Assembly (NCBI GenBank): GCA_029237695.1
Contig: CM055265.1
Span: forward strand, 80,780,447-80,844,446
Origin: Conchocele bisecta
Lineage: Eukaryota > Mollusca > Bivalvia > Lucinida > Thyasiridae
Direction of reading: 5' to 3'
Length of the DNA: 64,000 nucleotides
Within the stretch, counting starts at the first letter, position 1. The number at the start of each line of letters is the position of its first letter. The notes under the pieces are model-generated. The model saw only the letters and a program-made list of their open reading frames with translations. It did no database searches and had not been told where the DNA came from. The translations under genes were made by a program, and so were the position numbers. Shown in pieces: positions 16,401 to 42,175 of the stretch.

Positions 16401-19400
16401 CCCGGATGAATAGAATCTTTGGATATCAAGTTTGTCAAACTTGGGTTGGAAATTGTAGGAATTCAAACGCTTTTCCCAACCTTGCCTGATAAACTTCTCT
16501 ATATTGATATCATTTGTTAGGGCGCCTTCTGAAGGAAGGAGTGCTTATGGCATAACCCCAACGTCGTAGTCAGTGTAGTGTCTGTCTGGTTGTCTGTCCG
16601 TCTGTCCATCTTCAAAAATTAATAACTTCTCTAATGATGCTCTATCATGCTGTGATAAATCCACGACGCTCAGAACCCGCTAACCCTAAGGTCACAGTCT
16701 TAGCGCTTCCATACATTTATAATTTCTGTTTTCTTTCATCGCTCTTCTTGATATTTTACACATCCCTTCCTCTAATGGTTCTTTATCATGTTGTGTGAAA
16801 TTCATGACCCTCAGACCCTCGATAAGGTCACAATATTTGCGCTTTTGCAAACTTAACCCTTAGACCGCTATCTTATTTTTTTTGTCGTCTGCTGTTTATT
16901 TTCCATTTTGATCATCAAAAACATGCTTTGACAGCACTTTAGAATAATTTACAACATGCTTTGACAGCACTTCAGAATCATTTTCATTGGAAATGATTCT
17001 GAAGTGCTGTCAAACCATGTTTTTATTGAGAAATAAGGCAAGATATAAAAGCAGCAGCAGACGACAATTGTTGTGAGTAGCGGTCAAAGGGTTAACATTG
17101 GGGGAAATTTTCACACAGCTTCTTGATATCCTTCTGACAACTCTTGTTACGCATTGCTGTTGCCTTATCCATACAATAGACACTATAGCACTGAAGGCTA
17201 TAGTGTCTATTGTACAGAAATTGGTGGGTGGGGTAATGGTTTACAAATGAGCCTTTTATCGGATCCTAGGTCTGAGTCTTCCACCTGTGATTGTATTCAC
17301 GTACCGACTGAAATGTAAAAAGCACCAGTCATATATCAAAGTCATGTGATTGCCTTTTACAGACGTGACCTGTTTCCAAGGGTTCTTCAGCTACCCGGAC
17401 ATGCAGGCCATCCTGAAGCACTTCTGTGTTTACCATCTGAATGCCCCGGGCCAGGAGGAAGGGGCCATGACCATCAAACCCGAGTATGTTTATGTTTAAC
17501 CCGTACAAGGCGGAATCAAATTGTTTTTGTTTAACTCTTTGCACATTAGCTGTGAAAATAACAGCCAACAAATTGGAGGTATTTTTAATATTCTTATTTA
17601 TCTCGTTTTTAGCTTCACATTTTGCGGATTTTTTTTTGCGTCAGAAAGTTTGTACAAGCTTCTTCATCATGGTACGACTTTAATATTACTTGACGGATTG
17701 CTTCAATATTTGGACACTTGATATATGTGAGCATTTGGAACACATTCATGCCGCTATTAACATGACCTTGACCTTTTATACTATTACATTTTTGTGGAAA
17801 CACTTAGCCATTTTTTTACGTCAAAAAGTTTGTACAAGTTTCTTTTCATGATATACTTTAAAGGTACATGCCCACGCAGCAGGTTACACTGTACTACTAC
17901 TTTTCATTTTCTGTCATGCCTTATATGAGCCATTTGTCTACCCACTAACGAGTTATTTTTAATTACGGCGCGTGTTAATTGGTGTTAAATCGTATTTTAT
18001 ATGCCGCGACCAGAAAGGGTATTTTCCGACCTTGTGCTATTTTTACCAACACGCGTCACGTGACACGGTCAATCATATCACAGCTTTGACATGCGCAGTG
18101 AGGTATCGGAAGTTGAGAAGAAAAATCTCTGTTCGAGTCCAAATCTAAATCTCCACGTAACTCTTTCCATTTGGTGATCTGGTCTCCAATATTAAGCACT
18201 CTCCCTCAGACATTTTGCCTTTTTTTTGGCCGACGCCGTTTCATGCAATTTCCGTCCTGGACGTTTCGACATGTTGATATTCTTGTTTACATATTGGGAA
18301 GCCTACTGGCGTGCGTAGTATACTGCGCATGTGCACCGCAAGCCGTGATGTGAAAGTCGTCGTCCCCGCACATTATCAAAATAGACTGTTACCGCCGCGC
18401 GTCGCTAACAGTAAATTGATAATTAATAAATGATTATATTTGTATAGCGGGCACTCGTAATGTTTAGAACTGGTGGAATAGTGACATAATTATACACTTA
18501 TTAATTCCTATAAAGAACATTTTGTGCCTACTGCGTGGGCATGTACCTTTAATATTACTTGATGTATTGCTTCAATATTTGGACACTTGATACATGTGAT
18601 CATTCGGAACACCCTCATGCCGCCATTAACATGACTTTGACCTTTTTGTTGTACCTGCTTTAGCAGAAGTCACGACTATAATTGCCACTTTTTACGTCGT
18701 CCGAAATATTCTGAAGTTTGTACAAGCTTCTTCATCATGGTATAACTTTAATATTACTTGACGGATTTCTTCAATATTTGGACACTTGATACATGTGAGC
18801 ATTTGGAACACACTCATGCCGCCATTAACATGACCTTGACCATTTTGACCTTCACATGGTTGTGGAAACGCTTAGGCATTTTTTTTATGTCAAAAAGTTT
18901 CTTCAACCTTGACCTTTTTCGTATGTTAAACATGCACTTCTCTGATGGTTTTTATGATGCTTACTTCAGCACATGCCCATGATCATGTTATGGTCAAATG
19001 CCTTGGAGAGTGTGACACTGCTTCTGTGGCAGAATTCTTGTTGTGATGCTTACTTGAGCACATGCCCATGATCATGTTACGGTCAAATGCCTCGGCAGGC
19101 GCAACACTGCTTCCGTGGTGGAATTCTTGTTTATTTTCACTTGTTTGCGGAAACACTTATCCATTTTGTTTGCGTCAAAAAGTTTGTACACGTTTCTTCA
19201 TCATCATATAACATTAATGTTACTTGATGGATTGCTTCAATGTTTGGACACTTGATACATGTAAGCATTTGTAACACACTCATGCTGCCATTAACATGAC
19301 CTTGACCGTGTTTACCTTCACATGGTTGTGGAAACACTAACTATTTTTTATGTCAGAAAGTTTCTTCAACTTTGATTTTTTTCGTGTTTTAAGCATGCAC

Positions 19401-25400: not shown

Positions 25401-28400
25401 AGAACCTGTTGTATATCTGTGCAGTTGTGATATTGTTTGATTACACCATGTGATTTCTGTTGCAGCATTAAGAGATTCATTGGCATTGGGGTGGGGTCAG
25501 GATCCAATATACTGACCAGATATGCGGTGAGTACTTGTGGCTTGCTACCAATTAATGGGTGGCCCTGGGCTCGTTTCACTAAACTTTGTACAACTAAAAT
25601 GTTTGTAAGTGCAAAATTATGATAGTCTGCACTATTAACAATGTTTTCTTGTAAACAATTATTCAGTCAATCCTGCACATTTGCACAGTCTGATAAATGT
25701 CTACACTGTTAACTGTTAGTGAAACAAATGAATAAGAGCTGCCCGACTGAGAAAGGGAGGTTCTGGCCAGCTAAGTGTATACCGTCTGTTTCACGAAACC
25801 TGCCCAAATTTTACGGTCATATAAACAATGTAAAAACAATACTCTTTTCGATAATATTAAATTTTATCAAAATTTGAGAATGAGCCTTTTTATTTCGCGA
25901 AATTTGGTCCAATATTGATTTTATTGTGAAAAATTGATTTGTGTATGGGAATTTAACATGGGGGAAAACGAGGTGGAGGAGCAAAAAAATTTGGGAAATT
26001 CACTCTGAAACCTGGCTAGATAGCTTTGAAATGATCTAACTAAGAAAACAAAAGTTAAATTTTGAAAATCGGTCCAGTATTTCTGAAATTATCCAAATTT
26101 CCCCATGTTAAATCCCCATAGACATCTTCACTCTGTAACATGGGGAATTGTTTTTGCATTGTTTATATGGCCATAACATTTGGGCAGGTTTCATGAAACA
26201 GACAGTCAAGATCGAACAGCACATTTCATATGTGGCCTGATAGCAAGCTCTGTTGCTTGTTAGAAGCATGATGGGTGTTTCATTGATGAAATGGCGAACA
26301 GTGCAGATCCTGATCAGACTGCGGATGCACAGCCTGATCTAGATTTACACGGGTCACAAAACCCATAAGCCCCATTTCTCCAGTTCCAGCCACATACGAG
26401 ACGAGTCATTTTATTGTAATCTGAGCGATATCTCATGAAAAACATGTACACATTTTATATTTTCCATATTAAATATGACGTTGACAGTTAACAAAATGAC
26501 GTTGAAAGAATGTGCAGAGTAAATGCGGAATACAATTTGGCATTTGCTATGAAAATTTCATCACCTTTCGACGTTATTTACAGAAAGCATCACAGTTTCT
26601 GTAAATATTTTTAATGCAAGATCACACATCTACCTCCGTACAAAATCACATAGCTCGTCTCATAGGCAGATCGGGAGCTAGATAGTCCACAAATGCCACA
26701 AGTTCCAATCCTCAGTGATACAATGACACATTATTCCATTCCAGTTGATGTATCCAACCCGTGTGGACTCGCTGTGCCTGGTGAACGCCAATGCTACGAG
26801 GCCGGGCTGGATGGAATGGGGCTACCAGAAGGTTTGTGCACCATTCTAACCTACATACAGTGTCTTAGACTTGCAACAGACAAGAAATTCCATAGCTGTG
26901 GGTTATTTGATTTGTATGTGGATATATGCACGAGTACCGCAGCGTGATCGTTGCGCGGTGGAAGGAGTGGCATATATCCACATACAAAATATCCTTTATT
27001 ATTATATACGTAAATCACTTGTAATGTATATGTGCCTACAAAAACACACACAATGTCACTAAAATAAACAAATTAGTGATGATTTAGAAGGAACTATTTT
27101 AAGAGGTGAAATGTAGTTCCGTCACTGACCAATATGAATTCACGAGAATATGGAAAAATATTGACGGATTACGTACCATTGTGTAACGAAAGTACGTATA
27201 TAATAAGTTTAAATATGCACTGGCAAGAAGTAATATGATAGTGATAAATTACATTTTTGGAGCATTTATCCTTGTATAAACAGTCCATTTATACTAGCTG
27301 ACGGCCTTCCATGTTTATTTTGTATTATTTTAATGTTTCGCGATCGTGAGTGTTCAACAGTCAATATTTATTGATTTAGATACATTACTCTTTTATACAT
27401 GATAAATTGCATATGTGTCCGTTTGAATGCCTGTTCGGTACACTCTGGTTTATTAGTTAACCCACTATGCATTGACCGAATATACGCTGACTGATAACAA
27501 ACTGTTGTATCCTGCATGGAGTAATGATGCCATGTAACTCGTTGTTTACAGTGATAACCATATATATATGCCTATTATCTAGCATAAACTGTTATCTGAT
27601 TCATAGAATATGATGCTAGTGTCTTTTGATATCAATATCACCAGGCTCAGCTCGGAAACGGTAGGAATTCCGAGGCTCGCCTCGGAATTCCTACCATTTC
27701 CGAGCTGAGCCTTATAAACTTGACACTAGTATGGTATTTTCTATATATAAAAATGTCACTACTTGTGTAGCCTCAGGGGCCAGTCTGCATATGTATGCAG
27801 CTTGATCAGGGTCTACACTGTTGGCTATTACACCCGTTACTGTAGTTACAGTATGTAACATAGAAAATATTTCATCTACATATTTGTTTCTCAGCGCATG
27901 TTTGTGTTAATATGGTCGCGCCATCTGACGTCACATTGTTCATTTGTTAGTTGGGTACCTGATCTAGCTTACATAAAGTAAAACGTTGTAATTTGTGGCT
28001 ATGACTGCAGAAATGGGGCTTATGGGTTTTACAACCAGTGTAGATCCAGATCAGCCGGTGCATCCGCATAGTCTGATCAGGAACTAAACTGTTCGCCATT
28101 CCATCAAGCAATATAGATCATTACCAGGCTACAGAAGTCTGCCATTTGATCAGGAGCTACACTGGTCACAAATCTCATAAGCCCCATTTCCCCAGTCACA
28201 GCCACATGTAACATTGACAGATGAACTCTTGGTACCTGACACATAGTAATTAGTGTCTGGAGAAATGGGGCTTATGATTTTGCAACCAGTGTAGAACCAG
28301 ATCAGCCTGTGCATCCGCACAGTCTGATCAGGATCTGCACTGGTCGCCATTCAAACAATGAAACACCCGACCCGTTATACAGAAGTCTGCCATTTGATCG

Positions 28401-31400
28401 GGAGTTACACTGGTCACAAATCCCATAAGCCCCATTTTCCCAGTCACAGCCACATGTAACATTGACAGATGAACTCCTGGTACCTGTGGAGCGGACATTT
28501 AGTAATTTGTGGCTGTGACTGGAGAAATGGGGCTTATGGATTTTGCAACCAGTGTATATCCAGATCAGCCTGTGCATCCGCACAGTTTGATCAGGATCTG
28601 CACTGTTCGCCATTCCAACAATGAAACACCTGACCCGTTATATAGATCATTATCAGATCACAGAAGTCTGCCATGTGATCGGGAGCTACACTGGTCACAA
28701 ATTGCATAAGCCCCATTTCCCCAGTCACAGCCACATGTAACATTGACAGATGAACTCCTGGTACCTGTGGAGCGGACAGATCACCAGCTTTACAGAGGAG
28801 TACCTCCTGTGGCACTGGTTTGGCGCGGTAAGTCTCACATACTACACTCTTCTCATGCACATTGCACTGGGGTTAGCTCACGGGGGGTTGGCTTGGTTAT
28901 AGGATGGTATGACATACTGTTTTAGCTGAATACAAAATGTTATACAAGGTATTCATCAAGCATCACAGACATTTTTTACACAAAAACGTGTGTACATTAA
29001 TGTTCAGATGGAAATTGATGCACATTCTGATCACAACCTACATATACACTGATTACCAGTCAATCTGGCATTTAGTGTTACCCTTGTCCGTCCGTTCCGT
29101 TCCGTCCATTCGTCACCAGCCTTGTAACTCGTCAAACATTTAAACCATACTAGCTACAGACCTGAAACTTGGTAAGTTGCTTCGTTATGATGAGTGGATG
29201 CGTAAAGTTTATTTTGATTTTTAATTTGTCCCCCGGGTCATGGACTAACTCCCCCCTTTTCGTCTTAGAATTTCCCAATTTTGCCTTGTAACTTGTAAAA
29301 CTTTTAAACCGTACTAGCTACAGACCTGAAACTTGGTATGTAGCTTCCTTATGATGAGTAGATGTGCAAAGTTTATTTAATTTTTGATTCAACCCACAGG
29401 TCAGATTATCTCCCCCTTTTTGACTTAGAATTTCACCATTTTGCTTCATAACTTGTTAAACTTCTAAACCGTAATAGCTGAAGGCTTGTTGCTTGGTATG
29501 TAGTTTCTTTATGGTATGTAGATGCACACGGTGAATTTCTATTTTTGCTTTCACACTGAGCCATGGATTATCTCCCCCTTTTGGATTTGGAATTTTGCCT
29601 CGTTTACAATCAAAGCGATATGTGGGGCATCCGTGTTCTATGAACACATTTCCTAGTTTGTTCTGACCATAAAACGTCAGATTGACTAAATGACAAGTTC
29701 TTGAACACCAATTTATGATATGCAATTTGACTATAATTGGAAATTGTGATCAGGATCTATGCCGATCATGCATGTTCTAACAGCCTTTTAAGCTGGTGGT
29801 CCATGTTCTCCAGTGTTTGGTTATACACATTACAGGAGTAGTAAGATTAGTACTACCCTATTACTTATAGTGGGTGGGCCTAAGTAACAGGGGGCCATTT
29901 CACTCAACTTTGTATGACTAAAATGCTTGTAAGTTCAAAATTAACATTAACAATGTTTTCTTGTAAACAATTATTGCATTTGTATTTATTGAAATATGCA
30001 GCCTATGTTCAATAAATGTAAATCCATCAATTGAAAGTTTCAGACGATCCTAAATTTGCACTTACAAACATTTTAGTTGTACAAAGTTTAGTGACCCGGC
30101 CCCCAGGTGTGGTGATGACCTGGCAACAGTTCAAGTTTAGTGACCCGGCCCCCAGGTGTGGTGATGACCTGGCAACAGTTCAAGTTTAGTGACCCGGCCC
30201 CCAGGTGTGGTGATGACCTGGCAACAGTTCAAGTTTAGTGACCCGGCCCCCAGGTGTGGTGATGACCTGGCAACAGTTCAAGTTTTTCTAATTTCGGAGC
30301 TGAATGTATAAAATTGTTATGCCCCCAGTCGAGCTGGGAGGCATACATTGTTTGGACGGTGAAGGCTCCAGATAAGGAATTAGTAATTGAGTATTGTCAC
30401 TCCATCATTTCTGAAGCAATTGGGTATTTCCACATTTTAATTGGATAAAATAAAATCTCACTACTGTTTACACATTAACGGACAGCAATTATTGAATTAT
30501 TGGAACCTTATCTGTTGACAGGCCATTTAACACCGTTATGTAAAATAAATAAATTCTCGATTTTTCAGAGAACACGCTGGGAGAACCACGATCTTGTGAT
30601 GGTGTACCGAGACTACATACGGTCCATCAACACGCAGAATCTCTCCCTTTTTACTGAAGCATACCTCAAGTAAGAATCCCAATTTGTATCGCTGTAGTTT
30701 ATCACTATATAGTGATGCAATTGAGAATCAACTATTGTACCACAAATCGAAGAAATAGTCCAGCTTGATATACCACAAATGTACGATTCCAAAGTTTCGG
30801 CCTAAGGCCTAAGGCCTTGCTTGATCAAGGAATATTAATCAAGCATAATGAACCACAAACTGACATTCCAACATTTTGACCTAAGGCCTTATCAAGAAAG
30901 CATAATCGACCACAAACCCACTTTTCCAACGTTTCGGCCAAAGACCTTTATCAAGGAATATTAGTGGAGCTTAATGAACCACAAACCAACTATTCCAACT
31001 TTTTGGCGTAAGGCCTTTAGCAAGGAATAAGTGAACTACTTCCTTGATAAAGGCCTTAGACCAACATGTTGATGGGTTTGTGGTTCATTAAGCATCATTC
31101 AACATAGCATACATATTCCTGTGTCGTGTATTTTACCACTACGACTGTCATAAGACAAGTGGCCTAATCAACAAGGGGTGACCGTTAGACAGGCATATGT
31201 GTTGCTATATTGGCTAGGAATATAAAAACCACAAAATAATGTGTACTTTTTGTCGCCCCCGCTTGCGGAAAGCGCGATATAGTCGGTACTTTGACGTACG
31301 TGTGTCCGGTTAAAGTTTTTGGTTAAGTTTTTTGGTTAAAGTTTTTCGTTATACTATATTTCTGCAACTGCTTTGCCCATTACCTTGAAACTTCACATGG

Positions 31401-34400
31401 GTGTTTATCATCATCCATATTTTCATTCTACCTCCCACCCGTGCGACCCCTGTGCCCAATGTCAAGGTCAAATTACTTTGAAGTTTTTGGTTAAAGTTTT
31501 TGGTTAAAGTTTTTGGTTAAAGTTTTTTCATGTACTATATCTCTGCACCTGCTTAGCCCATTACCTTGAAACTTCACATGGGTGTTTATCATCTATATTT
31601 TCATTCTACCCCCCTCCCGTGCAGCCCCTGTGCCCAATGTCAAGGTCTAATTACTTTGTAATTTTTGGTTTAAGTTTTTGTCGCGCCCGCTTGCGGAAAG
31701 CACGATATAGTCGGCACTTTGGTGTACGTCCGTCCGTACGTACGTGTGTCCGGTTAAAGTTTTTTGGGTAAAGTTTTTCCCTCTACTATATCTCTTTTTT
31801 TAGTGTCCATGCCTCGCCCCAAGGCGCGACATGCAGGCCGCGGCCATCTAGTATGATGAAAGTATGAAATTTTGCATATTACCATTTTCACTAAACAAAT
31901 ATTTATTTTCTCTATTTACTTTTTGATGTGCGATGATCATACTTTATAATATGTTGATAAAAATATCTATTCAGGTAACGCATTTAAATACAGTAGAAGA
32001 TCAATCTCTCTAACAGGTCTCTATCGAACACTCCGGAAAATTCGAACTCGTCCAGTGGTCCCGACAAATTTCGCTATATAAATCATATTTTTTAGCTCGG
32101 CTATTCGAAGAATAGTTAAGAGCTTATGTAGTCACCCCGGCGTCGGCGTCACCGTCGCCGTCAAGCTTGTATATGGAATACTCCTGGCCCTACTCCCACC
32201 ATACTTGGACAACTTCATCTCCTAGTGATGTACATCAACAACCCCTGACCTATATTTGACCTTGACCTACATTTAACTTTGAATTACTTAGTTAATTCCC
32301 CTTGGTTAAGGTTTTTAGTCAACCTTGGTTAAGGTTTTTAGTCAAGCTTGTAGATGGAATACTATTGTGCATACAGACACCATACTTGGACAACCTTTTC
32401 TCATAGGGATGTACATCAATAACTCCTGATCTATATTTGACCTTGACCTACATTTCCTCTTGAATTACTTACTTAATTCCCCTTGGTTAAGGTTTTTAGT
32501 CAACCTTGTTTAAGGTTTTTAGTCAAGCTTGTAGATGTAATACTATTGTGCATACAGACACCATACTTGGATAACTTTTTCTCATAGGGATGTACATCAA
32601 TAACCCCTGACCTATATTTTACCTTGACCTACATTTAACCTTGAATTACTTAGGTATTTCCCCTTGGTTAAGGTTTGTACTCAAACTTGGTTAAGGTTTA
32701 TAGTCAAGCTTGTATATGGAATACTCCTGGGCCTACAGCAACCATACTTGGACAACTTCATCTCCTAGTGATGTACATCAATAATCCCTGACCTATATTT
32801 GACTTTGACCTACTTTTACCCTTGGATTACTTAGTTATTTACCTTGGTTAAGGTTTTTAGTCAAGCTTGTATATGGAATACTCCTGGGCCTACAGCAACC
32901 ATACTTGGAAAACTTCATCTCCTAGTGATGTACACCTATATTTTACCTTGTCCTACATTTAACCTTGAATTACTTAGTTAATTCCCCTTGGTTAAGGTTT
33001 GTACTCAAACTTGGTTAAGGTTTATAGTCAAGCTTGTACATGGAATACTATTGTGCATACAGACACCATACTTGGACAACCTTTAAGGTTTTTAGTCAAG
33101 CTTGTATATGGAATACTCCTGGGCCTACAGCAACCATACTTGGAAAACTTCATCTCCTAGTGATGTACATCAATAACCCCTGACCTATATCTGACATTGA
33201 CCTACATTTAACCTTGAATTACTTAGTTAATTTCCCTTGGTTAAGGTTTTTAGTCAACCTTGGTTAAGGTTTTTATGCGGGCCGCGGCCACCTTCTTTGT
33301 CAAGCTATGTGTACATCGACAACCCTCGTAGTCGAGCTATGCTGTTCTCCTACAGCTCTTGTTTTTACCTAAAATTCGAACTACGACAAAGTCGAACTCT
33401 GGAACCGAAGTCACGGTCCCTTGGTCAGTCAATCAACGTAAAGTGCTATTGATAGCTCGTACAGGTAAGTTTGTCGCAAGCGGATCTGTTTGCCTAACGA
33501 GGTGTGAATATCACGATTGGCGGTCTCTTCGATTTGTTTCGCTTGACAGGTGGTGACATTATATCACAAATTTAAAAATTAAACGGTGTTAATTCCACGT
33601 CAAGATGACCACAATAATGAATTCATTTGAACAAAATTCGCCTTTAAATATTTAATTGAATTTTAACTGTCACTCGAAAATGATCTGTGATAAAAAAACA
33701 TTCACTAGCAATAAAAATTGTCCATGGTTGTGAAGTTGTGGTTGTGAAGCGTAATTATAGCATAGTAAAATAAACACGTTTACAATAGGAATATTGCTCA
33801 CGACAACTTCTGGGTTTCGGTACGAAAAAACAAAACAAAGATGAGACGGTGTGTAATATTCAGTTTAATTAACAGTTTATTTATTTACGTATGCACACAT
33901 GTACATATTGAAATAAAATAATTTATTCATTATTATGTTTATTTGATATTTCTTCCAGAAGGCCATACAAACATCAATCAATGGTGTCATTCCTAAATGG
34001 AATGAAATCACTGACTAGTATTGATTTTCTTTCCCTCGAACTATGCCTGACTCAAACTTTTATTTCAGTCTGTTGCCGAGAGATCGATCTTCTACTGTAA
34101 TTTGAAACTGGCCTGCCTCATTTGTATATCTCAGGGATGAGAATTCTCAGATTTTTGGCTGATTTCAGACTTTTCTCTTGTAAAGTGAATTTTCGAAATG
34201 TTACAGGTTCAGTCAGATCTGTCCAAATTTGATACTTTTGCAAGGGGGGTTAGGAGTTTTCAGTCTTTTCAGAGGTATTTCAGACTTTTTTTCTCAGCAT
34301 CGCTCTCATCCCTGATATCTACAATTATGCGCATCACTGGAATGAATTGAGATATCAATATGCAATCATATGTAGACAACAGGCATTTGTAATTTGGATA

Positions 34401-36271
34401 AGGGGTGGAATACGATTATGTACTTGTTTATATTTCATAATAATAACATTTTTGGCCTAATCCATGGGAGTGCAGGTTTAAGCATTGAATCATTTACATG
34501 CTGAATCATTTACATACATGGTGTATCATTTACATGCTGAATCATTTACATGCTGAATCATTTACATGCTGAAATGCTGAATAATTTACAATGTGGAATC
34601 ATTTACATGCTGAAATGCTGAATCATTTACATGCTGAAATGATGAATCATTTACATGCTGGATCATTTACAATGATGAATCATTTACATGATGAATCATT
34701 TACATGCTGAAATGATGAATCAGTTACAATGCTGAATCATTTACATGCTGAATCATTTACATGCTGAAATGCTGAATCATTTACAATGCTGAATCATTTA
34801 CATGCTGAAAGCTGAATCATTTACATGCTGAAATGCTGAATCATTTACAATGCTGAATCATTTGCATGCTGAATCATTTGCATGCTGAAATGCTGAATCA
34901 TTTACATGCTGAAATGCTGAATAATTTACAATACTGAATCATTTACATGCTGAAATGGTGAATCATTTACATGCTGAAAATCATTTACATGCTGAAAATA
35001 ATTTACATGCTGAATCATTTACATGCTGAAATGCTGAATCATTTACATGCTGAATCATTTACATACATGGTGAATCATTTGCATGTGCATTTACATTTAT
35101 TGTTGTTTTCAGGAGGACAGATTTAAACATCGTGAGGGAGTTGGATTCCATGAAGAAAGCCGCATGCAGGACTGTCAAGTGAGTTTTAACCCTCACTACG
35201 TGGGAGACGAAAATTGTCATTTGCTGTTTTTCATTGTTGCCTTAATTCTTAACAAAAAACCTGTTTTGGCAGCACATGAGAATTGTCTCCAGTGGAGATG
35301 ATTCTCTTGCGCTGTCAAAACAGGTTTTTATCAAGAAATATTGAAAACAAAACATTTCCAGCAGACGACAAAATTTAATTCAGTGTAGTAAAGGTTAAGT
35401 AACGCATTAAATTAAAAAAATACACATTTGTTGTGTATGAAAATTGTTTAATAGTTTATTTCCATTTAGTCTTATGTCCAATGAAAGTATACATTGTCTT
35501 TTATACAGCTACCTTAGAGGTAAAATATATTAATGAAACTATAGCACAACACGTTTCACATTCAATGTGCACGTATAAAAATATTACCATTTAAAAAGTG
35601 GGACTTTTCTTTTCCACTTCAGAATATTACTATGATAGCTGCCTTGTTAACCCTTTCGCCTTGAATTGATTTTGATATGTTAAATTTCTGACCAATCCAA
35701 GCGTCTGAAAATGATTTTTGGACTAGTCCATTTATGAAAAGAGTGTCGTTTTTTTTATGCCACCGGGTTTCGAAGAAACGGGTGGCATATAGTGTTTGGA
35801 CCGTCCGTCCGTCCGTCCGTCCGTCCGGGCACACATTAGGGTACTTATGTGGCTAACCCCACAGGGTTATGGACTTAGTAAAGGATAGGGTTGGTTACAA
35901 TTAGCCACCTAAAAAATCCTTTTATGTGGCTAAAAATCGTTTTATGTGGCTAATATTTAACATGTGATAAGCCACATAAATATAGTACTGTAAGAACGTC
36001 CGTCCGTCCGTCCGTCCGTCCGTCCGGGCACACATTAGGGTACTTATGTGGCTAGCCCCACAGGGTTATGGACTTGTTAAAGGATAGGGTTGGTTACAAT
36101 TAGCCACCTAAAAAATCGTTTTATGTGGCTAAAAATCGTTTTATGTGGCTAATATTTAACATGTGATAAGCCACATAAGTACCCTAATGTAAGAACGTCC
36201 GTCCGTCCGTCCGTCCGTCCGTCCACCACCTAAGGGATGTCACGTAAGGACGTCCGTCCGTCCGTCCGTCC

Positions 36272-36302
<31 letters not shown>

Positions 36303-39300
36303 ACACTTTTCGGTTAACCTCTTTGTCACAGTTTCTCAAATATGCTGCAGGTGGCATCCGCATTCGACAGACGCATTTCTTGTTTTCTTCTAAAATCTAT
36401 GAAGTTATTTGCAAAAAGTGCATATCCTGACGAGACGGCTCGTCTGGATCTACAAGGTTTGAAAACACCACTATAGAGGGCTGTCGTGTTGAAAAGGTTA
36501 ACATTTATCCAGTTTTTCTTGTGCGGTTTAATGTGACCCAGGATGGTACATTGCGAACATCTATCACAGATGTAGGAGCATGCTGCTTGTAGGCGACGAC
36601 TCGTCTGGATCTACATTTTAGAGGGCTGTAGTGTGGAAATTGTTAAAATTGATCAGTTTTTCAAAGAACAATTTCATTTTTGTGTGGTTTAAAGGTACAT
36701 GCCCACTCAGTAGGCACAAAATGTTCTTTATAGGAATTAAATAAGTGTATAATTGTGTCACTATTCCACCAGTTCTAAATATTACAAGTGCCCACTATAC
36801 AGATATATTCATTTACTTTAGTAATATTTATTTTACTGATGGTGACTATCGGTGGTAATGGCTATTTTCATATGCAAATGGGGCATTCAATTTTTTTTTT
36901 TTATAATATTAATTATATGCGTCACCAGAATAATTTTTCTTTCCGACAGATTATAAAGCATGATCATTCCACATCAAAAAATAAATACAGAGAACAAATA
37001 GTAATGTCCGTTAACATTTTAAGGAAACACGTTTATTGCCCCTGATATCAGTATGGAAATTTACGTCTGATATAAAATGTATAATACTGCCAATCAATAC
37101 GTGGGGTAATGGTGAATGAATGTTTATTTTGCCAGAAAATTTCTCTGATATAAAGAACATTTTGTGCCTACTGAGTGGGCATGTGCATTTAATGTGACCC
37201 AGGCTGGTACATTGTGAATGTCTATCACAGGTGCAGGAGCATGCTGCTTGTGGGCGATGATTCGGCTCACCTGGATGACGTCGTCGAGATGAACGGCCGA
37301 ATGGATCCCGAGATAACCGACTTCATGAAGGTATGTGTAACACAACGTTTGGATAACTGTCACGTTTATACAGTTTTAATTTCTAAACTGACTTCATTAA
37401 TGTATGTGTAACACAACGTTTTGATAACTGTCAAGTTTATTGTTTTAACCCTTACACCTAAAATAGTATAAAATGGATAACCCTAGCCATGGTCTGGACT
37501 GACAAACAAAAACTTACCGTATTAACCCTAAATATTTGGACACAATTTGCTTTGGGAAACCCCTATTAACCCTTACACCGCTATCTTAATTTTTTTGTCG
37601 TCTGCTGTTTATTTTCTATTGTCCATTTTTATACCCCCACAAACAAAGTTTGTTGGGGGTATATAGGAGTCTGTCGGTCTGTTGGAAATTCCCTTCCGCT
37701 CTATATCTTCTACACCGATGCATGGATTATCAAATGGCTTGGCACAAATGTTTGTCATGATGAGAAGGTGTGTCGCGATCAATAACCACGCACCTACGTC
37801 CAAGGTCAAGGTCACAGTTGAAGGTCAAAGGTCAAACCTATATAAATTCCCTTCCGCTCTATATCTTCTACACCGATGCATGGATTTTCAAATGGCTTGG
37901 CACAAATGTTTCTCATGATGAGAAGGTGTGTTGTGATCAATAACCACGCACCTACGTCCAAGGTCAACGTCACAGTTGAAGGTCAAAGGTCAAACCTATT
38001 GAAATTCCCTTCCGCTCTTTATCTTCTACACCGAAGCATGGATTATCAAATGGCTTGACACAAATGTTTCTCATGATGAGAAGGTGTGTCGCGATCAATA
38101 ACCACGCACCTACGTCCAAGGTCAAGGTCTCAGTTGAAAGTCAAAGGTCAAAAATATTGAAATTCCCAAATGGCTTGGCACAAATGTTTCTCATGATGGA
38201 AGGTGTGTCGCGATCAAATTAACCAGCACCTCGTCCAAGGTCAAGGTCATGTTGAAGGTCAAAAGGTCAACCTATTGAAATTCCCTTCCGGCTCTTTATC
38301 ACCCGATGCATGGATTATCAAATGGCTTGGCACAAATGTTTCTCAATGAATGAGAAGGTGTCGCGATCAATAACGCACCTAGTCCAAGGTCAAGGTCACT
38401 GTTGAAGGTCAAAGGTCAAACCTATTGAAATTCCCTTCCGCTATATCTTACACCGATGCATGGGATTCAATGGCTTGGCATGTTTCTGATGAGAAGGTGT
38501 GTGCGATCAATAACCGCACCTACGTCCAAGGTCAAGGTCATGTTGAAGGTCAAAGGTCAAACCTATTGAAATTCGCTTCCGCTCTATATCTTCTACACCG
38601 ATGCATGGATTATCAAATGGCTTGGCACAAATGTTTCTCATGATGAGAAGGTGTGTCGCGATCAATAACCACGCACCTACGTCCAAGGTCAAGGTCACAG
38701 TTGAAGGTCAAAGGTCAAACCTATTGAAATTCCCTTCCGCTCTATATCTTCTACACCGATGCATGGATTATCAAATTGCTAACCACGCACCTACGTCCAA
38801 GGTCACAGTTGAAGGTCAAAGGTCAAACCTATTGAAATTCCCTTCCGCTCTATATCTTCAACACCGATGCATGGATTATCAAATGGCTTGGCACAAATGT
38901 TTCTCATGATGAGAAGGTGTGTCGCAATCAATAACCACGCACCTACGTCCAAGGTCAAGGTCACAGTTGAAGGTCAAAGGTCAAACCTATTGAAATTCCC
39001 TTCCGCTCTATATTTTCTACACCGATGCATGGATTATCAAATGCCTTGACACAAATGTTTCTCATGATGAGAAGGTGTGTCGCGATCAATAACCACGCAC
39101 CTACGTCCATGGTCAAGGTCACAGTTGAAGGTCAAAGGTAAAAAATATTGAAATTCCCAAATGGCTTGGCACAAATGTTTCTCATGATGAGAAGGTGCGT
39201 CGCGATCAATAACCACGCACCTACGTCCAAGGTCAAGGTCACTGTTGAAGGTCAAAGGTCAAACCTATTGAAATTCCCTTCCGCTCTATATCTTCTACAC

Positions 39301-42175: not shown

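What the first reader, a model, noticed from the sequence alone, without database searches (positions are those of the whole stretch)
27987..41466. Exon-intron borders of one gene repeatedly duplicated in tandem
Seen: four borders of the NDRG gene have extra tandem copies that contain the splice site plus only the first or last 11-31 nt of the exon: exon 8 acceptor (2 extra), exon 11 acceptor (1 extra), exon 11 donor (2 extra), exon 12 acceptor (1 extra). In each acceptor case the complete exon follows the last copy; in the donor case it precedes the first. That is the arrangement expected if only the copy attached to the full exon is under selection. Inference: this is a recurrent route of intron growth, in which unequal exchange or template switching has one endpoint in the exon edge and leaves decoy splice sites. 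Four cases in one gene is more than I would expect by chance. A bias of duplication endpoints toward exon edges (splice-site secondary structure, R-loops, MITE hairpins nearby) would be new to me.
Basis: partly seen in the sequence, partly recalled or inferred. Interest (0 to 1): 0.8.

Follow-up and report, generated by a model that had tools for sequence, protein, structure and literature searches.

The report
Tandem-copied exon edges left as decoys
Small DNA duplications often copy the edge of a coding exon together with its splice signal into the neighbouring intron, apparently because splicing ignores such half-copies, so this odd-looking gene is ordinary among the genes checked in its genome.

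Summary
In detail: four borders of an NDRG gene have local extra copies holding the splice site plus about 12-41 nt of exon, with the intact exon at the proper end. The copies are 80-89% identical to the true border, so not an assembly artefact. The claimed excess fails: a shift control expects 5.9 +/- 2.4 of 24 borders covered; 3 are seen under its rule, 4 in all. The pattern recurs in 9 of 35 other exons sampled (TCP1, kinesin). Together 14 of 91 edges carry copies, against 13-16 expected from pseudo-exons placed in introns. Local-duplication coverage is flat in introns up to the splice site (17-25%), then falls inside exons from 16% to under 1% beyond 90 nt. No whole exon is duplicated (0 of 46; significant with one of two detection methods). 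19 of 22 decoys keep AG/GT, about as drift predicts. Best reading: near-uniform small duplications and insertions filtered by selection; half-exons without a partner splice site escape notice, whole exons do not. The four cases differ in origin: a MITE-bearing triplication, two tandem duplications, one insertion flanked by a ~28-bp repeat. A mild endpoint bias toward exon edges is not excluded (P 0.06-0.11).

The parts
27988..28238 (+). Exon 8 array, unit 1: MITE copy + decoy acceptor (AG 28219-28220) + ~18 nt exon piece
28239..28501 (+). Exon 8 array, unit 2: MITE copy + decoy acceptor (exon piece from 28469, ~29-32 nt)
28502..28827 (+). Exon 8 array, unit 3: MITE copy + true acceptor + complete exon 8 (28750-28827)
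36434..36606 (+). Upstream copy of exon 11 acceptor: begins in a dispersed repeat, then intron, decoy acceptor, exon piece 36570-36606
36689..37192 (+). Later TTAA-flanked MITE insertion (44-nt inverted ends, 95% complementary) that split the second exon 11 acceptor copy
37231..37330 (+). Exon 11, complete, with true acceptor and donor
37386..37448 (+). Decoy donor 1 of exon 11 (71 bp downstream, exon end at 37401, GT kept)
40343..40408 (+). Decoy donor 2 of exon 11 (exon end at 40354, GT changed to CT), displaced by inserted repeats
41286..41320 (+). Decoy acceptor of exon 12 with 13 nt of exon (41308-41320): left arm of the direct repeat that flanks the insert
41321..41432 (+). Insert (ends approximate) with a hairpin-like fold, 77% identical to 40850-40979
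41433..41541 (+). Right arm of the direct repeat, true acceptor and complete exon 12 (41454-41541)

Best explanation
This genome carries a heavy load of small local duplications and insertions (units mostly ~50-300 bp, covering roughly a fifth of intron sequence in the sample). They fall about uniformly along genes. One that begins in an intron and ends inside an exon copies a single splice site with a stub of exon; the copy has no partner splice site, so exon definition passes over it, the protein is unchanged and the intron simply grows. One that covers a whole exon makes a spliceable extra exon and is removed by selection. The result is decoy edges at about 15% of exon edges, a smooth fall of duplication coverage inside exons, and no whole-exon copies in the sample. 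In NDRG the routes were: tandem triplication of a MITE-bearing unit (exon 8), two tandem duplications (exon 11 acceptor and donor), and one insertion flanked by a ~28-bp direct repeat (exon 12). Shown: the copies, their rates against controls, the gradient, no whole-exon copy in 46 exons, and retention of AG/GT. Inferred: that splicing ignores the decoys, and that selection rather than mutation shapes the gradient.
For: Rate: 14 of 91 edges in 46 exons (TCP1 9/52, kinesin 1/18, NDRG 4/21) against 13.1 +/- 3.8 and 16.1 +/- 4.4 for pseudo-exons. Profile: introns 0.17-0.25 with no rise at the edge; exon bins of 15 nt 0.163, 0.107, 0.078, 0.058, 0.036, 0.021, 0.008. Whole exons: 0 of 40 with gapped detection against 8% (32/400) and 13% (519/4000) of pseudo-exons; in the same test 10 of 40 exons had an edge copy against 28% and 27%. 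Decoys keep AG/GT in 19 of 22 copies, 16.4 expected from their identity. Alignments of independent cases: L060, L062, L063, L068, L069, L073, L074; L082 by coordinates only. NDRG protein is colinear with octopus NDRG3-like across the exon 11 and 12 borders.
Against: Whole-exon absence is not significant with ungapped detection (0 of 46, 1.0 and 1.8 expected, P(0) 0.37 and 0.16). Pieces up to 60 nt are somewhat more frequent than expected (13 against 7.9 and 8.8, P 0.057 and 0.11), which pure selection does not predict. No RNA data: use of the decoys in splicing was not tested. The sample is three gene families; kinesin gave only 1 of 9 exons, with shorter flanks searched. One counted edge (L052) rests on a weak 27-nt match whose copy lacks the GT. 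Exon borders outside NDRG were set by a splice-score rule, not by transcripts.
Confidence: 0.72

Rival explanations
1. Mutational bias: duplication endpoints are drawn to the first tens of nucleotides inside exons (reader's hypothesis: R-loops, splice-site structure, nearby MITE hairpins).
For: Exon-side reach is short (mean 31.8 nt against 53.8 and 64.6 in pseudo-exons, P 0.019 and 0.002); short-reach edges 13 against 7.9 and 8.8 expected (P 0.057, 0.11).
Against: Edges are not spanned more often than intron points (14 against 13.1 and 16.1) and coverage does not peak at the edge. Purifying selection alone predicts short reach.
Confidence: 0.15
2. Transposons do it: insertions a few nucleotides inside exons duplicate the splice site as part of the flanking repeat, so decoys are footprints of insertions, as in introner-type intron gain.
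For: Exon 12: the insert is flanked by a ~28-bp direct repeat holding acceptor + 13 nt exon, and a 77% identical element lies ~470 bp upstream. The exon 8 unit holds a high-copy MITE. Splice sites borne by target-site duplications are known in introners (PMC9860276, passages read).
Against: Exon 11 donor, L068, L074 and L082 look like head-to-tail copies by their spacing, though units outside NDRG were not checked for repeat families. A ~28-bp repeat is long for a cut-and-paste element (recalled). The exon 8 left break lies about 6 nt outside the MITE end. The genome search for the exon 12 element did not complete.
Confidence: 0.1
3. Assembly or haplotype artefact.
For: The window and other stretches are rich in tandem repeats, which are hard to assemble.
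Against: NDRG copies are 80-89% identical to the true borders and one carries its own later insertion. The exon 8 edge with the same junction occurs at a second place 1.77 Mb away.
Confidence: 0.02

Closest known systems
[quoted passage not shown]
   Same: A small tandem duplication inside a gene is absorbed because a duplicated splice motif lets splicing remove the extra DNA.
   Different: There an exon-internal AG/GY is duplicated and a new intron arises. Here a real splice site with intron sequence beside it is duplicated and an existing intron grows.
Introners and transposon-borne introns with splice sites in target-site duplications (PMC9860276, passages read; PMC3296678, passages read)
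   Same: Exon 12: inserted DNA flanked by direct repeats that carry the splice site.
   Different: The insertion extends an old intron; repeat ~28 bp rather than the 3-9 bp quoted there; no multi-gene family shown.
Intron gain by double-strand-break repair with filler DNA and flanking direct repeats (PMC3296678, passages read; the Daphnia work is recalled)
   Same: Direct repeats flank filler DNA at the exon 12 border.
   Different: Old intron enlarged, and the filler resembles a nearby element.
Tandem exon duplication (recalled)
   Same: Local duplication of coding DNA in genes.
   Different: In the 46 exons sampled the copied exon is partial and lacks one splice site.
Satellite-like and Helentron-borne tandem repeats in bivalve genomes (PMC7492417, search listing only)
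   Same: Genome replete with short tandem arrays, as in these introns.
   Different: Those arrays are described as carried by mobile elements; here the copied edges are gene sequence. Whether the rest of each unit is repeat-derived was looked at only in NDRG.

Membership tests
Tandem duplication as mutation type | Adjacent head-to-tail copies sharing one junction | tested here: met
   Exon 8 (three units), exon 11 acceptor, exon 11 donor (71 bp apart). Exon 12 does not fit: only the ~28-bp edge is repeated around an insert
Intron gain by tandem genomic duplication | New intron created by the duplicated motif | tested here: not met
   The NDRG copies of exons 8 and 11 contain intron sequence beside the splice site, so the intron existed before the event; intron positions in relatives were not available
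Introner / transposon-borne intron | Many related insertions in genes with shared ends | tested here: inconclusive
   Exon 12 element: two copies in 225 kb of fetched sequence; the whole-genome search did not complete
Introner / transposon-borne intron | Splice site lies in the target-site duplication | tested here: inconclusive
   Exon 12 flanking repeat holds the acceptor, but whether it is a target-site duplication is unproven
MITE in the exon 8 unit | Terminal inverted repeats | tested here: met
   26 copies L009-L034 printed with matching inverted ends TGTGGCTGTGAC... / ...GTCACAGCCACA
MITE in the exon 8 unit | TA target-site duplication | tested here: inconclusive
   Counted by eye: TA on the left in 14, on the right in 17, on both sides in 12 of 26 copies; the exon 8 copy itself has none intact. 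Superfamily not tested
Tandem exon duplication | Whole exon with both splice sites copied | tested here: not met
   0 of 46 exons ungapped, 0 of 40 gapped
Decoys spliced into mRNA | RNA support | not testable with these tools
   no RNA reads available

The most novel reading that the evidence does not exclude
Duplication endpoints are genuinely drawn to the first ~60 nt inside exons (about 1.5-fold over the intron rate), so exon edges are mildly fragile sites and introns grow preferentially by copying their own borders.
Probability: 0.15. Interest if true: 0.7.

Novelty: new variant of a known kind. Interest (0 to 1): 0.48.

Why it matters
If the sample holds genome-wide, genomes like this one contain a large natural experiment on splicing: many real splice sites copied with 10-100 nt of exon but no partner site. 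The length at which such copies stop being tolerated would measure how much exon makes a splice site visible, and would show that introns can grow by copying their own borders at no visible cost. It also warns gene finders and alignment tools of true-looking exon fragments in introns.

Tried and rejected
Assembly error: judged unlikely, copies are diverged and one carries a later insertion. Exon 8 decoys as a product of transposition exactly at the MITE end: not supported, the repeated stretch begins about 6 nt outside it. Exon-edge excess in the gene: rejected. My first self-comparison (blastn) appears to lose short offsets (the 49-bp and 71-bp copies were absent from its lists), so the exon 11 donor's 71-bp copy was missed; a direct offset scan (ungapped, offsets 20-1000) was used. 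The two methods differ in places: the L069 acceptor is found only by gapped search, L052 only by the ungapped scan. The ORF beside L008 could not be named. The NDRG-like locus on C8 gave one clear exon in 20 kb. Literature: listings showed no title on exon-edge decoys as a class, but searches listed only 15 of 213, 79, 45 and 95 matches; PMC2891723, PMC3296678, PMC9860276 and PMC2767349 were opened, passages only.

Rows dropped before counts: L045 (intronless chaperonin on a separate contig), L049 and L050 (long open frames), L058 (no acceptor found), the NDRG exon near 25467 (end not resolved) and the stop side of the last exon. TCP1 gave 48 matches, loci for 30, 26 exons used. Kinesin gave 124 matches, letters for 9 exons only, picked from the top of the list, with shorter flanks.

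Full report
The NDRG gene runs on the + strand with its last exons at 28750, 30569, 35113, 37231, 41454 and 42072. Identity is firm: Pfam Ndr E=2e-37, PDB NDRG3 E=4e-31; the best of 12 protein relatives are octopus NDRG3-like (73%) and Tegillarca (65%). Exons 8-13 joined align to octopus without a gap at the exon 11 and exon 12 borders; the query begins at exon 8, so that acceptor is not tested by it.

Observation. All four duplicated borders exist as described. Exon 8: three units of MITE + acceptor + exon start. The MITE is high-copy (6330 first-look candidates, 40 scored) with matching inverted ends in the 26 copies printed. The two internal junctions have the same layout (exon ...GACA, two variable bases, T, then AGTAATT), so they are most simply one duplication followed by amplification. 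Exon 11 acceptor: a ~160-bp duplication whose exon-side break falls where exon (GGCTCACCTGGAT) and intron (GGCTCGTCTGGAT) agree in 11 of 13 bases; the intron side lies in a dispersed repeat, and the second copy was later split by a TTAA-flanked MITE. Exon 11 donor: copies 71 bp apart, a third pushed to 40343 by later repeats. Exon 12: only ~28 bp around the acceptor is repeated, with an insert between the arms that is 77% identical to 40850-40979; this is an insertion with a flanking direct repeat, by target duplication or template switching.

Is it an excess? In this gene 26% of intron positions are covered by a local duplication within 300 bp and 32% within 1 kb. Shifting the 24 edge positions rigidly through the window gives 5.9 +/- 2.4 covered, with 3 observed under the same rule and 4 in all. 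Seven other 10-kb stretches have 14-69% coverage at 1 kb. So the gene is not unusual.

Independent exons. Of 30 TCP1 loci, 26 exons had usable borders. Eight of them carry edge copies in the final count (one, L052, weak), among them L060 (both edges, several copies), L063 (donor, 93% and 89%), L068, L073 and L074. Nine kinesin exons gave one (L082, two copies, 98 nt of exon). Border definition was checked on nine NDRG exons first: the 17 true splice edges were recovered, while the last exon, which ends at a stop, got a false donor.

Combined result: 46 exons, 91 edges, 14 covered (TCP1 9/52, kinesin 1/18, NDRG 4/21; 9 acceptors and 5 donors). Pseudo-exons of the same lengths give 13.1 +/- 3.8 in the same contexts and 16.1 +/- 4.4 elsewhere. 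Coverage is flat through introns (0.17-0.25 by 100-nt bin) and falls inside exons: 0.163, 0.107, 0.078, 0.058, 0.036, 0.021, 0.008 per 15 nt. Mean reach into exons is 31.8 nt, against 53.8 and 64.6 in pseudo-exons (P 0.019 and 0.002). Whole-exon copies: 0 of 46 (1.0 and 1.8 expected; not significant) with ungapped detection. With gapped detection it is 0 of 40 against 8% and 13%, i.e. P about 0.04 and 0.004 by my arithmetic. Of 22 decoy copies 19 keep AG or GT, 16.4 expected from identity; the displaced second donor copy of exon 11, outside this count, has lost it.

Reading. Edge rates equal to the intron rate, no peak at the edge, a smooth fall inside exons and no whole-exon copies are what near-uniform duplication plus purifying selection would leave. 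A half exon without a partner splice site is tolerated; a complete one is not.

A decoy has moved. Among the 40 candidates scored, the best place outside the NDRG array for the exon 8 unit is C1:82583032-82583336, 1.77 Mb away. There, between one MITE copy and the remnant of another, lies the exon 8 edge (acceptor + 32 nt of exon, alignment score 31, best of 500 letter shuffles 13) with the same exon/AGTAATT junction. So a MITE-edge-MITE unit was probably copied out of the NDRG array. A search with the spacer alone returned only the three NDRG copies and missed this diverged one, so it gives no sign of a large family but would not see old copies.

Against known work: intron gain by tandem duplication of proto-splice sites (PMC2891723), introners with splice sites in target duplications (PMC9860276) and repair with filler and direct repeats (PMC3296678) share steps with these cases but make new introns, whereas here old introns grow (passages read). 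The listings I saw (several capped at 15) showed no paper on decoy exon edges as a genome-wide class; that is a limit of the searches, not proof of absence.

Noticed in passing
L008:1500-1800 (C1:82583032-82583336): The NDRG exon 8 edge with the array junction sits between a MITE copy and the remnant of another, 1.77 Mb from NDRG: an exon-edge decoy apparently carried off in a MITE-edge-MITE unit.
   Followed up: partly
30084-30285: Four 49-bp tandem copies, 100% identical, in the intron after exon 8: very young duplication or a read/assembly effect.
   Followed up: no
41308-41320 and 41454-41466: The exon 12 decoy encodes I-A-D-C as in octopus NDRG3-like, while the functional exon now reads I-S-D-C: the decoy may preserve the older coding state.
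   Followed up: partly
36689-37192 and about 17860-18560: TTAA-flanked MITE with long inverted ends (TTAAAGGTACATGCCCAC...); the second place was read by eye.
   Followed up: no
40975-41099: Palindromic element (59-nt arms, 85% complementary, 7 nt between them), close to the relative of the exon 12 insert.
   Followed up: no
L045 (C895:2025450-2026946): Intronless 554-residue chaperonin-like open frame on a separate contig over 2 Mb long: possibly a bacterial associate in the assembly.
   Followed up: no
L074:1251-1568, L082:3-616: TCP1 and kinesin acceptors with more than one extra copy, exon pieces up to 56 and 98 nt: good test cases for a minigene assay.
   Followed up: partly
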